A stretch of 64,000 nucleotides of DNA from Acanthamoeba sp. SK_2022b (lineage: Eukaryota > Discosea > Longamoebia > Acanthamoebidae), in NCBI GenBank assembly GCA_027943245.1, contig JANDJZ010000251.1:1-64000 (forward strand), read 5' to 3'. The notes beneath the pieces are model-generated. The model was not told the origin of the DNA. It worked only from the letters and a program-made list of their open reading frames with translations, and did no database searches. A program made the translations under genes and the position numbers. Position 1 is the stretch's first letter, and every line of letters begins with the position of its first letter. Positions 26,047 to 30,172 of this stretch are shown piece by piece.

Positions 26047-29000
26047 ATGGCCACCGGCTCAGCCTCATCTTTGGCAGAAGGGCTGAGGGAGGAGACTTGG
26101 CGGCGTGCATTGGGCAATGAATTTGGGCTGTCGTACTTTGGAGCACTAGAGCGCTTCCTCAACAACGAGTGGCTCCAGCTGCAGGGCGACGAGAGTTGCG
26201 CAGTCTTCCCGCCACGGGAGCAGGTGTTTGAAGCGCTCAACCTGTGTCCGCTCAATAGGGTCAGGGTCGTCATACTCGGGCAGGACCCCTACCACCAACC
26301 AGGACAGGCTCACGGCCTCGCCTTTTCTGTGCTGCCGGTGGCCCATACCCCTCCGTCGCTCTCCAACGTTTTCAAGGTGTGCGCCCTCCTCACACACCTG
26401 CTTGCTTTGCCCTTTTGGCCGACCCTTGCTTTCTTTCTTTGCGTGCTCCGAGCAGGAGCTACAGAGCGACCTTGGCCTGCCACCAGAGGCCTTCCCCCAT
26501 GGCCACCTGCTTCCTTGGGCGGAACAGGGCGTCTTGCTGCTCAACACATGCCTCACAGTCAGGTTGGGCATCTTACAAATATATATATATATATAGGAAC
26601 AATGGCCAAAAGCTCATCCCACACACGTTTCGCAGGCGAGACGCACCGCTGTCACACTCGGGCAAGGGCTGGGAGATGTTCACCAACCGCGTGCTTGAAG
26701 CTGTGAGCGTGGAGAACGACGGGGTTGTGTTTCTGCTGTGGGGCAAAAACGCCCAATCCAAGAGCCGCCTCATCGATCGCTCGCGACACTCTATTCTCAC
26801 AGCTGCCCATCCCTCTCCCTTTTCCGCCGACAAAGGTGCGGTCTGCCCTCTGCTGAGGGCTCCCTTTGTTGTGTTCGGAACTCGCACTTATCGAGCGATC
26901 GGGGCGGTGGTCCACCAGGATTCTTCGGCTGCAGACACTTTACCAAGGCCAACGAGCTGCTGGTCAAGGCGGGGCATGCGCCCATCCAATGGGCTCTCGC
27001 CGACGTGAAGCCCCGCTTGTCTCCACTGGCGGAAAGCGCAGCACAAAGATTCGACGAGTTTGATGAGAACGCCCGTGATGACAACGACAATGTAGGGGAC
27101 AGTAGCACGCAGCCTCTGTCTCAGGCCAACGAGGCACCTGCTGAAGGATCAGCAGAGCCAAAACCCACGAAGATCTTCGTGGGCCTGGTGTTCGTGGTGT
27201 GCGGCCTCATCGCCGAGATGCGCGAGCTCCACACCAAGATCCGCCAATACGGCGGCGAAGTCTCCCACATAGTCTCTGCACAGGCACGGTCCCCCTCAAC
27301 CACCTCTCCAGAGGAGCGAAGCGCTAACCATACCGACCCGCCTAACATGGCCTTAGATCACGCACATGGTGACGACCCAAGCCGAGGTGGACGCAGCCTC
27401 GTACAGGGTTGCTCGAGCCATGGCCAACCACAAGGTACATGTCGTGTCAGCAGACTTCGTGGCCGACTCGATTCGCGCCGGCGAGCGGTTGGAGGAGACC
27501 CGTTACTCTTTCAAGGGCCGGTCCACCGGTACGCGTCTTCGCCTTCGCGGCCAAGTCGCGGAGGCTCAATCTTCTTCCTCCGTCCTAGGAGCCACTGCGA
27601 TGGCGGGCTTCCCCACTCTGGCGAGAAGCGACCTTTCACTGAGAACCAGAGGCGGCCAAGAAGAGACGATCGTCTTTGGGAACGATGTCGAACTGCAAGC
27701 TACAGCCGCGCAGGGCTCTTTCCCCGATCACCCTGTGCGCCATGTGGTGAAGCCGAAGAGGAAGTTGGTGTCTTCGCCACCGCGGCCGGCCTTTGAGTTT
27801 GCGCCGCCGCCGGCGCTGTCGCTTTCTGCCCCGCCACATCAGACGGGGCTGTCGCAGGCAGCGCCCTTCGTCGCCAAGCAGCCGGCAAGCGCCGGCGAGG
27901 GACCGTCGGCGTCCGCTCCTCAGCCTTCGACGAGGCAGGCCAACGATAAGTGGCGGCCTCATTGGGGTCTGGTCAAGATCTACAAGGCGGACGACCCCCA
28001 TGCGCCCTTCTTCCCCAAGGACTTCGAGATCGTGCGCAGGGATGTGCTGAACGTACGCGAAGGCCCCCACTGGGCTCTCCTTGGCCATTGTGTTGTTCGG
28101 TGGCTTACTCTCGCGCGGTCTCCGTGTGTTTTGTGCAGGTGACCGAGCTAAACGAGAACCGCAACAAGTTCTACAGCATGGAGCTGCACCAGGGCCGGGA
28201 GAAGGGCAAGGTCTACTTCCGCATCTATACGCACTATGGACGCACGGACCTGCTCGACGACTCTGGTCCGTCTACTGATTCCACGGGCATGTCCGACGAA
28301 TCTTCTGATCTCTTCATCGAGCGCAAGGAGTGCCGATACCTCCACAGCTTCCAACAGGCCAACGTAATGCCCCCCCCCCCAAACCCGCACCAGCCATCTT
28401 GCTGCCGTCAAACAGCGTATCTGTCGTTCACTAATGCCTCGATCTTCCTTCTCCACGCAGTGGATCTACAATCTGATCTTGGAGGACAAGTCTGACACCG
28501 AAGCCAAGGGCTACAAGCCCGTGAAGCTCGCCGCTGCCACGGTTGGCTCCGAGAAGGGGCGCTTGGTCGATGCCGCCCAAGACAGAGCTCATGCTAATGG
28601 TGCTCACCACGTCTGATGTCGCCGACTTTCCACCGAGAATAGACTGGCTGACATTGGCTTATACACCAACACCAGCGGAGGACACCGAACTGATCGCGAC
28701 GGAGGCAGCGCACGACACCGTCATCAACGAAGCGGTGAAGCAGTTGGTGAGGGACATCTACGAAGAAGCTACCAACCAGCTGATGAGCAAGGTCTCGGCC
28801 AAGATCACCCCTCGTGGACTCGAGACCCCTCTCGGCATTCTCGACATCACGCAGATCCAGGAGGGCGAGGCCATTCTTGGGCGCATCCAGGAGCTCCTGC
28901 TCGTCGGAGGCTTCCTAGACCAGGGGTCTGTTGCCAAGCTTTCGGGAGAGGTACTGCGCGTTCTCCCTGGATCCGGAGCGAGTTCGTGTGCGTGGACTAA

Positions 29001-30172
29001 CTGGCCCTGCGCCAGTTCTACACGCTCATTCCGCACAGGCTGGGCCGATCCAAGGCGGATATGGCTGCAGCGGTCATCGACACGATAGAGAAGTTGGAGG
29101 AGAAACAAGAGCTGCTCCAGCTCATGAAGGACGTGCTCAAGGTAACTCGTCTCTCCACTCTCCAGTCTGCGCACTAAGCTCACTCTCTGATGTCTTCAAC
29201 CAAGGTTATGAGCCACGTGCGGTCGGGCAGCCAGCCTGGCTCTGCGCTAAACGAAGACGACCTCGAGGTCCGAATCAAGTACAAAGCGCTGAATTGCGCA
29301 ATCTCACACGTACCCCATGGCTCGCCTGAGTACAAGGGCGTCAAGAAGATGATCAGTACCTCTCTCTCTCTCCACCCCCACATCGTCAACGCAATGAAAG
29401 ACTCTCGTCTCGACTGCGCCTGACTCAAAAGTGCCGGATGGCATCTAGAGGAGGATCTGGACAGCGCTGGCATTCGTTTAGTCAACGTCTTCAAGGTAAG
29501 GCGCGAGAAGGAGCACGAACGATTCACGCAGACCGTCTTTAATACGCGCTACCTCTTTCACGGCTCGCGCATGGGTTCGGCGCTCCTCCATTTTCTCCGG
29601 CATGTGTGCAGTGGGCACAATCAACAGCTTGCTCTTCTCACGAGAGGCTCCTAGGTAATTGGCTGGGCATCTTGTCGCGAGGCGTCCTTCCGCCGAAGCG
29701 GGTCACCTCGCTCGGTGTCGCGCGGACCGACGAGGGCCTGCTGGGCTCGGGCATGTACTTTGGCGAGACCGCTGCCACCAGCGCCAAGTACTCGACGCCG
29801 GGCCAGAGGGGCTACCGCATGATGCTCGTCGCCACAGTGGCTCTCGGCAATGTCAAGGACTACCACCAGCCCAACCCCGAACTCTCCAAACCTCCGCTCA
29901 ACTTCCACAGGTACGCCCACGTCGTGTCTAATGCTGGTTGTTGATGGCGTGCGACGAGGGACTTGTTTGTTCTGCATTCTCTTGGAATTGACTTTGTGAT
30001 CTTGATGTGAAGCTGTCACGGTGTCAAATCGACCCCGTATGCGCCCACTGGATTCGTCGACAGCGAGTACGTGATCTACGATACTGATCAGCAGAGGATC
30101 GACTATGTGCTCCAATTCCAGTTACGACTTCGAGACCGCTTCCACCTCGAGGTTTGTGGGCTTTGTTTTTGA
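26047..30172 (+). CDS. Fused uracil-DNA glycosylase / BRCT-WGR-PARP
   Basis: N-terminus: family-1 UDG, which removes uracil from DNA. Exons 26047-26376, 26456-26562, 26636-26835 and 26919 onward join in frame. They carry [18 protein letters not shown] (catalytic Asp loop, about residue 78), LLWGKNAQ, the HPSPFSA minor-groove loop and [15 protein letters not shown]. Instead of stopping after IQW, the frame runs through an acidic linker into a BRCT domain (KIFVGLVF ... [12 protein letters not shown]). Then come a Pro-rich linker, a WGR domain ([12 protein letters not shown] ... GRTDLL), the helical regulatory domain ([30 protein letters not shown]) and a PARP catalytic domain. The H-Y-E triad is present ([33 protein letters not shown]). 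Stop TGA 30170-30172. Oddities: a GC-AG intron (27294-27356) and an unresolved frame change near 28560-28620. No PARP zinc fingers. Confidence 0.85.

What the first reader, a model, noticed from the sequence alone, without database searches (positions are those of the whole stretch)
26047..30172. Uracil-DNA glycosylase fused to BRCT-WGR-PARP
The UDG exons splice in frame into an exon (from 26919) that has no stop after the UDG C-terminus and runs through an acidic linker into BRCT, WGR, PARP regulatory and catalytic domains, with H-Y-E intact. UDG makes the abasic lesion and PARP senses and signals the resulting break. One polypeptide doing both would couple lesion creation to ADP-ribosylation. 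I know of no described UDG-PARP fusion (from memory, not a search).
Basis: partly seen in the sequence, partly recalled or inferred. Interest (0 to 1): 0.88.

Follow-up and report, generated by a model that had tools for sequence, protein, structure and literature searches.

The report
Uracil-excising PARP with RPA domains
An amoeba gene appears to encode one large protein that joins a uracil-removing DNA repair enzyme to an ADP-ribosylating damage signaller and, very probably, to single-strand DNA-binding domains, so that steps usually done by separate proteins may be wired together in one chain.

Summary
UNG exons run in frame, without stop or in-frame ATG, into a BRCT-WGR-PARP module; catalytic motifs of both enzymes are intact. 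An independent metagenomic protein, P0001, carries BRCT-WGR-PARP, UNG and RPA-type OB folds on one chain, in another order. The gene therefore probably runs to 33457: UNG-BRCT-WGR-HD-ART-OB-OB-NTase-like, about 1,900 aa. The ART is nearest PARP4, so mono-ADP-ribosylation is as likely as PAR. The genome has four other UNG loci, a separate RPA70-like gene and many PARPs; none of those UNG loci shares a contig with a PARP match. There is no transcript evidence, and linker statistics alone do not prove the fusion. Best model: a self-contained detector of uracil in single-stranded DNA that excises the base and ADP-ribosylates the site. New architecture of a known kind.

The parts
26047..27010 (+). 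Family-1 uracil-DNA glycosylase (UNG) domain; exons 26047-26376, 26456-26562, 26636-26835, 26919-27010
   Evidence: NCBIfam ung equivalog 249.7 bits; PDB UNG 1e-68 with GQDPYH/LLNT/HPSP aligned; splice model
27011..27163 (+). Acidic linker, about 50 codons open in the UNG frame, no in-frame ATG
   Evidence: best of six frames by codon score, but only 0.025 per codon, no better than the best frames of 2 of 16 introns (0.03); GC3 0.52 against 0.79 in the rest of the gene
27164..27506 (+). BRCT domain, interrupted by intron 27284-27356 (GC-AG) or 27272-27356 (GT-AG)
   Evidence: Pfam BRCT_2 31.5 bits, cut-off 27.3; coordinates
28044..28535 (+). WGR-type region with Y-G-R (THYGRTD), with an insertion after YGR
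   Evidence: Pfam only 16.5 bits, under cut-off; aligned to WGR-PARP relatives P0121, P0122, P0001
28726..29261 (+). PARP regulatory (helical) domain
   Evidence: Pfam PARP_reg 57.6 bits; PDB PARP4 alignment
29337..30136 (+). ADP-ribosyltransferase catalytic domain, H909 (29559), Y948 (29756), E1017 (30065)
   Evidence: Pfam PARP 107.4 bits; PARP4 6.6e-46; coordinates
30152..30340 (+). PARP-to-OB junction: phase-0 donor 30152 (GAG|GTTTGT); acceptors in phase with the OB frame at 30241, 30295, 30304, 30313, 30340; unspliced reading stops at TGA 30173-30175; splicing to 30195 would also meet an early TGA; ATG at 30341
   Evidence: with phases by arithmetic; splice not determined
30476..31551 (+). 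Two OB folds like RPA70 DBD-A (30476-30972) and DBD-B (31033-31551); exons 30341-30544, 30624-30770, 30868-31069, 31192-31358, 31426-31562
   Evidence: PDB human RPA70 4.5e-33; Pfam REPA_OB_2 60.1 bits; P0001 OB part 31% identity, 1e-20; model
32377..33457 (+). C-terminal nucleotidyltransferase-like region (GGS...DxD) and stop; exons 31641-32467, 32547-33457
   Evidence: 30-36% identity to the C-terminal region of PARP proteins P0128-P0132 (E 1.9e-29 to 1.8e-41; alignment); P0135

Best explanation
26047-33457 is one gene for a protein of about 1,900 aa: UNG, BRCT, WGR, helical domain, PARP4-type ART, RPA70-like DBD-A and DBD-B, NTase-like region. Most likely working: the OB folds hold the protein on single-stranded or gapped DNA (inferred); UNG removes uracil there (motifs shown, activity inferred); the abasic site or the break that follows engages the WGR/helical domain and releases the ART (inferred from the PARP family); the ART ADP-ribosylates the protein itself and neighbours, probably with single ADP-ribose units (inferred from PARP4 kinship), which recruits repair factors with the BRCT and then loosens the protein from DNA. 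The NTase-like region is unexplained. Shown: domain order, intact motifs, in-frame junction UNG-BRCT, independent co-fusion in P0001. Not shown: the transcript and any activity.
For: In-frame junction without stop; nearest in-frame ATG upstream of BRCT is at 26676 inside UNG, although the BRCT start motif lies at residue 5-14 in the 6 BRCT-bearing relatives looked at (P0001, P0122, P0129, P0130, P0131, P0135; P0133 and P0134 were not looked at). P0001 has BRCT-WGR-HD-ART-UNG-OB on one chain, 2 member sequences on 11 contigs. Its UNG and the window UNG are sisters in a tree of 34 of 123 collected UNG rows (92/78, below the 95/80 mark). The downstream OB folds are RPA70 DBD-A/B; the C-terminal region is elsewhere attached to PARP, including in a Physarum transcript ORF. 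Clean splice sites from 30341 to 33457. In human cells RPA contact lets UNG act on uracil in RPA-coated ssDNA (abstracts of PMC8053108 and PMC10810282), a precedent for UNG + RPA as interacting proteins. Sister fusions join the same kind of PARP to DNA ligase (P0123, P0125-P0127) and to a PNK 3'-phosphatase domain (P0134).
Against: No RNA evidence. The UNG-BRCT linker has only weak coding signal (GC3 0.52 against 0.79; codon score equalled by 2 of 16 introns; stop-free in 15% of shuffles; two of six frames stop-free). The PARP-OB junction has several possible splices, a read-through stop at 30173, and one good-looking acceptor (30195) that would lead to a stop; ATG 30341 could start a separate gene. 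Lack of AT-rich spacers inside the gene is not diagnostic, since none occurs from 26631 to 44015. The PARP tree is unresolved: window and P0001 lie in one weak 7-row group (60/84) and are not sisters. In the UNG tree this genome's C505 falls into the same weak 5-row group (82/84) as window and P0001. UNG sits at a different place in P0001, which was seen only as a predicted protein. Balamuthia's relative P0122 lacks UNG, OB and NTase-like parts. WGR is below the Pfam cut-off.
Confidence: 0.72

Rival explanations
1. The fusion ends at 30175: UNG-BRCT-WGR-PARP (about 1,050 aa) is one gene and the OB-OB-NTase-like exons are a second, closely following gene starting at ATG 30341.
For: Read-through stop at 30173 and in-frame ATG at 30341; the spacer before UNG (25924-26046, 123 bases) is equally short; P0122 lacks OB and NTase-like parts.
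Against: In P0001 the OB folds sit on the same chain as PARP and UNG; in P0128-P0132 and P0135 the NTase-like region sits on the same chain as PARP. A good phase-0 donor lies at 30152. The third protein search (which could see only proteins of about 800 to 2,540 aa) found no free-standing OB-OB-NTase-like homologue; its two hits were a PARP-NTase-like protein and an NTase-like protein.
Confidence: 0.18
2. Ordinary neighbours: UNG and BRCT-WGR-PARP are two genes (overlapping or with a hidden first exon for PARP), and the open frame between them is chance.
For: The linker is short and its coding signal weak; the spacer before UNG is only 123 bases, so genes can lie close together here.
Against: No in-frame ATG for PARP outside UNG; stop-free in-frame entry; same modules co-fused in P0001; no AATAAA on the + strand from after 25957 to 36000 (a weak point, as the signal used here is unknown and the same holds past 33457).
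Confidence: 0.1
3. It is a fusion protein but not a repair-signalling enzyme: a defence factor against DNA viruses or mobile DNA of the amoeba, which attacks uracil-containing or single-stranded foreign DNA and ADP-ribosylates replication proteins.
For: The genome has other UNG, PARP and RPA70-like genes, so this one need not serve housekeeping; shuffling of modules as between the window and P0001 is common in conflict proteins (general knowledge).
Against: No direct evidence; the domains recognised by Pfam are standard repair domains; no viral homologue with UNG was found (0 of 4 viral loci, two of them alike over the fetched DNA).
Confidence: 0.12

Closest known systems
P0001, predicted protein from metagenomes (jgi, ena), 1324 aa
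   Same: BRCT-WGR-PARP_reg-PARP, UNG and RPA-type OB folds on one chain
   Different: UNG lies after PARP, not at the N-terminus; no match to the NTase-like C-terminus; GQDPYV instead of GQDPYH; 32% (BRCT-PARP part) and 52% (UNG) identity
Clade 5 (PARP4/vault-PARP-like) proteins of Amoebozoa (PMC4245714 section 9; PMC2964712 passages)
   Same: BRCT N-terminal to PARP, PARP4-type catalytic domain, long C-terminal extension; clade expanded in Amoebozoa
   Different: Section 9 of PMC4245714 names 14-3-3, ubiquitin-related, actin, VIT and vWA additions; the words uracil, glycosylase, nucleotidyl and OB-fold do not occur in its main text; its figures could not be seen
BRCT-WGR-PARP of Balamuthia (P0122); PARP-NTase-like proteins of Dictyostelium (P0130, P0131), Arcella (P0128) and Physarum (P0135)
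   Same: PARP core and, except P0122, the C-terminal region; BRCT in P0122, P0130, P0131, P0135
   Different: No UDG and no RPA OB domain among their Pfam labels; P0128 has no BRCT label and P0135 no WGR label
Human UNG2 acting with RPA and PARP1
   Same: UNG and RPA brought together at uracil in ssDNA (PMC8053108, PMC10810282 abstracts); the PARP1 part is recalled
   Different: Separate proteins; UNG contacts RPA2 through an N-terminal helix, whereas here RPA1-type OB folds would be covalently attached
Bacterial DNA ligase-WGR-PARP (P0123, P0125-P0127; L091, L093) and PNK3P-WGR-PARP (P0134)
   Same: Related PARP (33-47% identity in the best BLAST stretch) fused to another DNA repair enzyme
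   Different: Ligase or 3'-phosphatase instead of UNG

Membership tests
Family-1 uracil-DNA glycosylase (UNG) | Full-length match to curated UNG models | tested here: met
   TIGR00628 249.7 bits, cut-off 185.75
Family-1 uracil-DNA glycosylase (UNG) | Catalytic motifs GQDPYH and HPSP and the uracil-binding Asn (motif roles recalled) | tested here: met
   D80, N140, H204 at 26284, 26543, 26808, aligned to solved UNGs
Family-1 uracil-DNA glycosylase (UNG) | Uracil excision | not testable with these tools
   needs recombinant protein
PARP superfamily, H-Y-E type | PARP catalytic domain with H-Y-E | tested here: met
   Pfam 107.4 bits; H909, Y948, E1017 aligned to PARP4
PARP superfamily, H-Y-E type | PARP regulatory (helical) domain | tested here: met
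   Pfam PARP_reg 57.6 bits
PARP superfamily, DNA-dependent | WGR domain | tested here: inconclusive
   16.5 bits, cut-off 22; by BLAST it aligns with WGR-bearing relatives
PARP4 / Clade 5 | Catalytic region nearer to PARP4 than to PARP1-3 | tested here: met
   Sequence search of solved structures only: 6.6e-46 against 1.9e-28; own PARP tree unresolved
PARP4 / vault PARP | VIT and vWA domains after the ART | tested here: not met
   No such Pfam match in either part; VIT and vWA found beside another PARP of this genome, C215
RPA70 | DBD-A and DBD-B OB folds | tested here: met
   4.5e-33 to human RPA70 residues 164-393
RPA70 | N-terminal DBD-F and zinc-bearing DBD-C (recalled) | tested here: not met
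   No Pfam match for them in the 864-aa part; so RPA-like, not an RPA70 subunit
Single fused polypeptide | One transcript across all domains | not testable with these tools
   no RNA data held

The most novel reading that the evidence does not exclude
A single protein carries its own RPA-like ssDNA grip, a uracil-DNA glycosylase and a DNA-activated ADP-ribosyltransferase, making an autonomous one-chain unit that finds uracil in single-stranded DNA, creates the abasic site and marks it at once; the same set was assembled in at least two domain orders (window and P0001), so the combination itself is under selection.
Probability: 0.45. Interest if true: 0.85.

Novelty: new variant of a known kind. 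Interest (0 to 1): 0.74.

Why it matters
Uracil removal before replication, in single-stranded DNA, has been questioned because it could cause mutagenic bypass and double-strand breaks; in human cells UNG is reported to do it through contact with RPA (PMC8053108 abstract). A natural covalent union of UNG, RPA-type OB folds and a PARP would say that evolution found it useful to keep lesion making, strand holding and signalling together. It would give a testable link between UNG and ADP-ribosylation, a PARP4-type enzyme with an obvious DNA-repair setting, and a natural tethered tool. With the ligase-PARP and phosphatase-PARP fusions it suggests that such PARPs are repeatedly welded to DNA repair enzymes.

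Tried and rejected
AlphaFold of the C-terminal exon (32546-33454 with seven relatives): mean pLDDT 44.8, not used for any fold search; the NTase reading rests on the GGS...DxD pattern (recalled signature) and the shared alignment only. The PF26128 label comes from the protein database; the local Pfam copy gave no such match. AT-rich spacer test: not diagnostic. Codon-score test of the linker: weak. PARP tree of 22 rows: unresolved; own C215 and C526 were dropped beforehand because their joined pieces were under 150 aa. UNG tree: 34 of 123 rows used; own C169 and C737 rows are incomplete and C505 includes intron read-through. Viral origin of P0001: first scan none; second scan gave 4 loci with WGR-PARP only, two alike, 0 of 4 with a UNG match in the about 13.4 kb fetched. 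Prokaryotic source of the fusion: 33 of 36 genome loci had a PARP match; 0 of 33 had UNG in the same frame, 2 of 33 a ligase; several loci are cut short by contig ends. Protein searches were limited by length: about 581-1848 aa, about 800-2,540 aa, and only about 8,000 candidates were scored each time; one search listed 120 of 310 hits. So short unfused UNGs, longer fusions and unlisted hits were not seen. No Acanthamoeba protein was listed; this says little, as records near the window's own genome may be left out.
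Full report
The window lies on contig C422 of a 45-Mb, 1129-contig genome without a name. The organism is not identified by any search; nearest named relatives of the PARP part include Balamuthia, Arcella and Dictyostelium, so an Acanthamoeba-like amoeba is my inference.

Checking the observation. UNG exons join by GT-AG introns 26377-26455, 26563-26635 and 26836-26918. The frame from 26919 goes on without a stop through the UNG C-terminus into a BRCT domain. The introns in the PARP part have in-frame solutions; the one between WGR and the helical domain has many, and I chose 28600-28675 because relatives share the sequence up to GSEK. 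Pfam finds UDG, BRCT, PARP_reg and PARP above cut-off and WGR below it. Active-site motifs are intact.

Is it more than chance? The open linker by itself is weak evidence: 15% of shuffled linkers are stop-free, two of six frames are stop-free, and the codon score is best in the coding frame but small, equalled by the best frames of 2 of 16 introns. Two facts weigh more. A separate PARP gene would have no start: there is no in-frame ATG between 26676, inside UNG, and 27218, inside BRCT, whereas in the 6 BRCT-bearing relatives looked at the BRCT start motif lies at residue 5-14 (P0133 and P0134 not looked at). And among the 120 listed homologues (of 310 found, 7994 scored) the best, P0001, has UNG and PARP on one chain; it is the only one of the 120 with both Pfam domains, and the only one of 15 with UDG in the PARP-centred search.

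What P0001 adds. It reads BRCT-WGR-PARP_reg-PARP-UDG-REPA_OB_2, with a local rpa1 match over residues 1048-1287. This made me look past 30172. The next exons, 30341 to 33457, join with clean splice sites into 864 aa (8 variants, differing at two donors and one acceptor). Residues 26-263 match RPA70 DBD-A/B (human RPA70 4.5e-33); P0001's C-terminus aligns with residues 47-285 at 31%. Residues 532-837 match the C-terminal region of PARP proteins from Dictyostelium, Arcella and metagenome or unnamed sources (E 1.9e-29 to 1.8e-41) and of a Physarum transcript ORF. So both downstream blocks are, in other organisms, on the same chain as such a PARP. The simplest reading is one gene: UNG-BRCT-WGR-HD-ART-OB-OB-NTase-like. 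The exact splice between ART and OB is open: donor 30152 in phase 0 with several acceptors in phase with the OB frame; the unspliced frame stops at 30173, and acceptor 30195 would lead to a stop.

Origin. In a tree of 34 of 123 UNG rows the window and P0001 UNG domains are sisters (92/78, not reaching the 95/80 mark). Three of this genome's other UNGs (C730, C169, C737) group elsewhere; the fourth, C505, falls in the same weak 5-row group (82/84). The PARP tree is unresolved: both lie in a weak 7-row group (60/84) and are not sisters. One acquisition of UNG followed by a change of order, or two fusions of related UNGs, both fit.

The rest of the genome. Four other UNG loci (C730 in one open frame, C505, C169, C737), PARP matches on 13 other contigs plus C886, and a separate RPA70-like gene on C1048. 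No contig but C422 has both UNG and PARP matches, though some of these contigs are short (C169 10 kb, C737 34 kb). C215 carries a PARP with VIT and vWA matches downstream; C886 a BRCT-WGR-PARP gene related to the window's (52% over 228 columns) without UNG in the 9.9 kb read. The fusion is an extra, probably specialised copy.

Prokaryotes and viruses. Of 36 prokaryote loci found with the PARP alignment, 33 had a PARP match; 0 of 33 had UNG in the same frame, 2 of 33 had a DNA ligase there, 26 of 33 had a macrodomain match (25 beside, 1 in the frame); one (L078) has a divergent UNG match nearby. Four viral loci, two alike, have WGR-PARP alone.

Mechanism. UNG in human cells excises uracil from RPA-coated ssDNA through contact with RPA, and this matters for pre-replicative repair (abstracts only of PMC8053108 and PMC10810282). 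Here RPA1-type OB folds would be covalently attached. I therefore propose that the OB folds place the protein on ssDNA or gaps, UNG removes uracil, and the abasic site or following break activates the WGR-HD-ART, which modifies the protein and its surroundings. In the alignment to PARP4 the position which in PARP1 is a lysine needed for chain growth (recalled) is threonine in both PARP4 and this protein; PARP4 is deposited as a mono-ADP-ribosyltransferase. So the product may be mono-ADP-ribose. These steps are inference.

Literature. Full-text searches (listings) found no UNG-PARP fusion (the library lacks most subscription papers and bioRxiv). In PMC4245714 (section 9 in full, other passages) Amoebozoa have an expansion of Clade 5 PARPs and A. 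castellanii three further types with additional domains, two ubiquitin-related, and actin-related ones; uracil and glycosylase do not occur in the main text, but its figures could not be seen, so a drawn UDG domain there is not excluded. PMC2964712 (passages) describes Dictyostelium Clade 5B with BRCT and long C-terminal extensions, and holds neither word.

Verdict. A real, probably larger-than-described fusion: new domain architecture within the PARP4-like kind. What is missing is a transcript.

Noticed in passing
L065-L093 (prokaryote loci): In 26 of 33 prokaryote loci with a WGR-PARP of this kind a macrodomain match lies beside it (25) or in its frame (1): a likely writer-eraser pair of ADP-ribosylation.
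   Followed up: partly
P0123, P0125, P0126, P0127; L091, L093: Bacterial DNA ligase-WGR-PARP fusions; P0134 fuses a PNK 3'-phosphatase domain to WGR-PARP.
   Followed up: partly
L078:1102-1746 (-) and 1896-3326 (+): Labilithrix MAG: a UNG match (50% identity) stands divergently beside the WGR-PARP frame.
   Followed up: no
G000 contigs C730, C505, C169, C737: Four other UNG loci in this genome, one in a single open frame (C730); more than I would expect of a eukaryote (recalled), and contamination or haplotypes were not tested.
   Followed up: partly
window 31090-31157: ACACA repeat, 13.6 copies, 100% matches, inside the modelled intron 31070-31191 near the start of the second OB fold.
   Followed up: no
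window 33559-35148 (-): Converging open frame on the minus strand, 529 aa, rich in K and E, no Pfam match at E 0.01.
   Followed up: no
window 24832-25923 (+): Upstream open frame rich in Ser/Pro, ending 123 bases before UNG, followed by an AT-rich spacer (GC 0.31) with AATAAA at 25957.
   Followed up: no
P0030 (Plasmodiophora brassicae): A 701-aa protein with two Pfam UDG stretches, that is two UNG domains in tandem.
   Followed up: no
window 49755-49828 (+): tRNA-Met (cat), the only tRNA found in the window.
   Followed up: no
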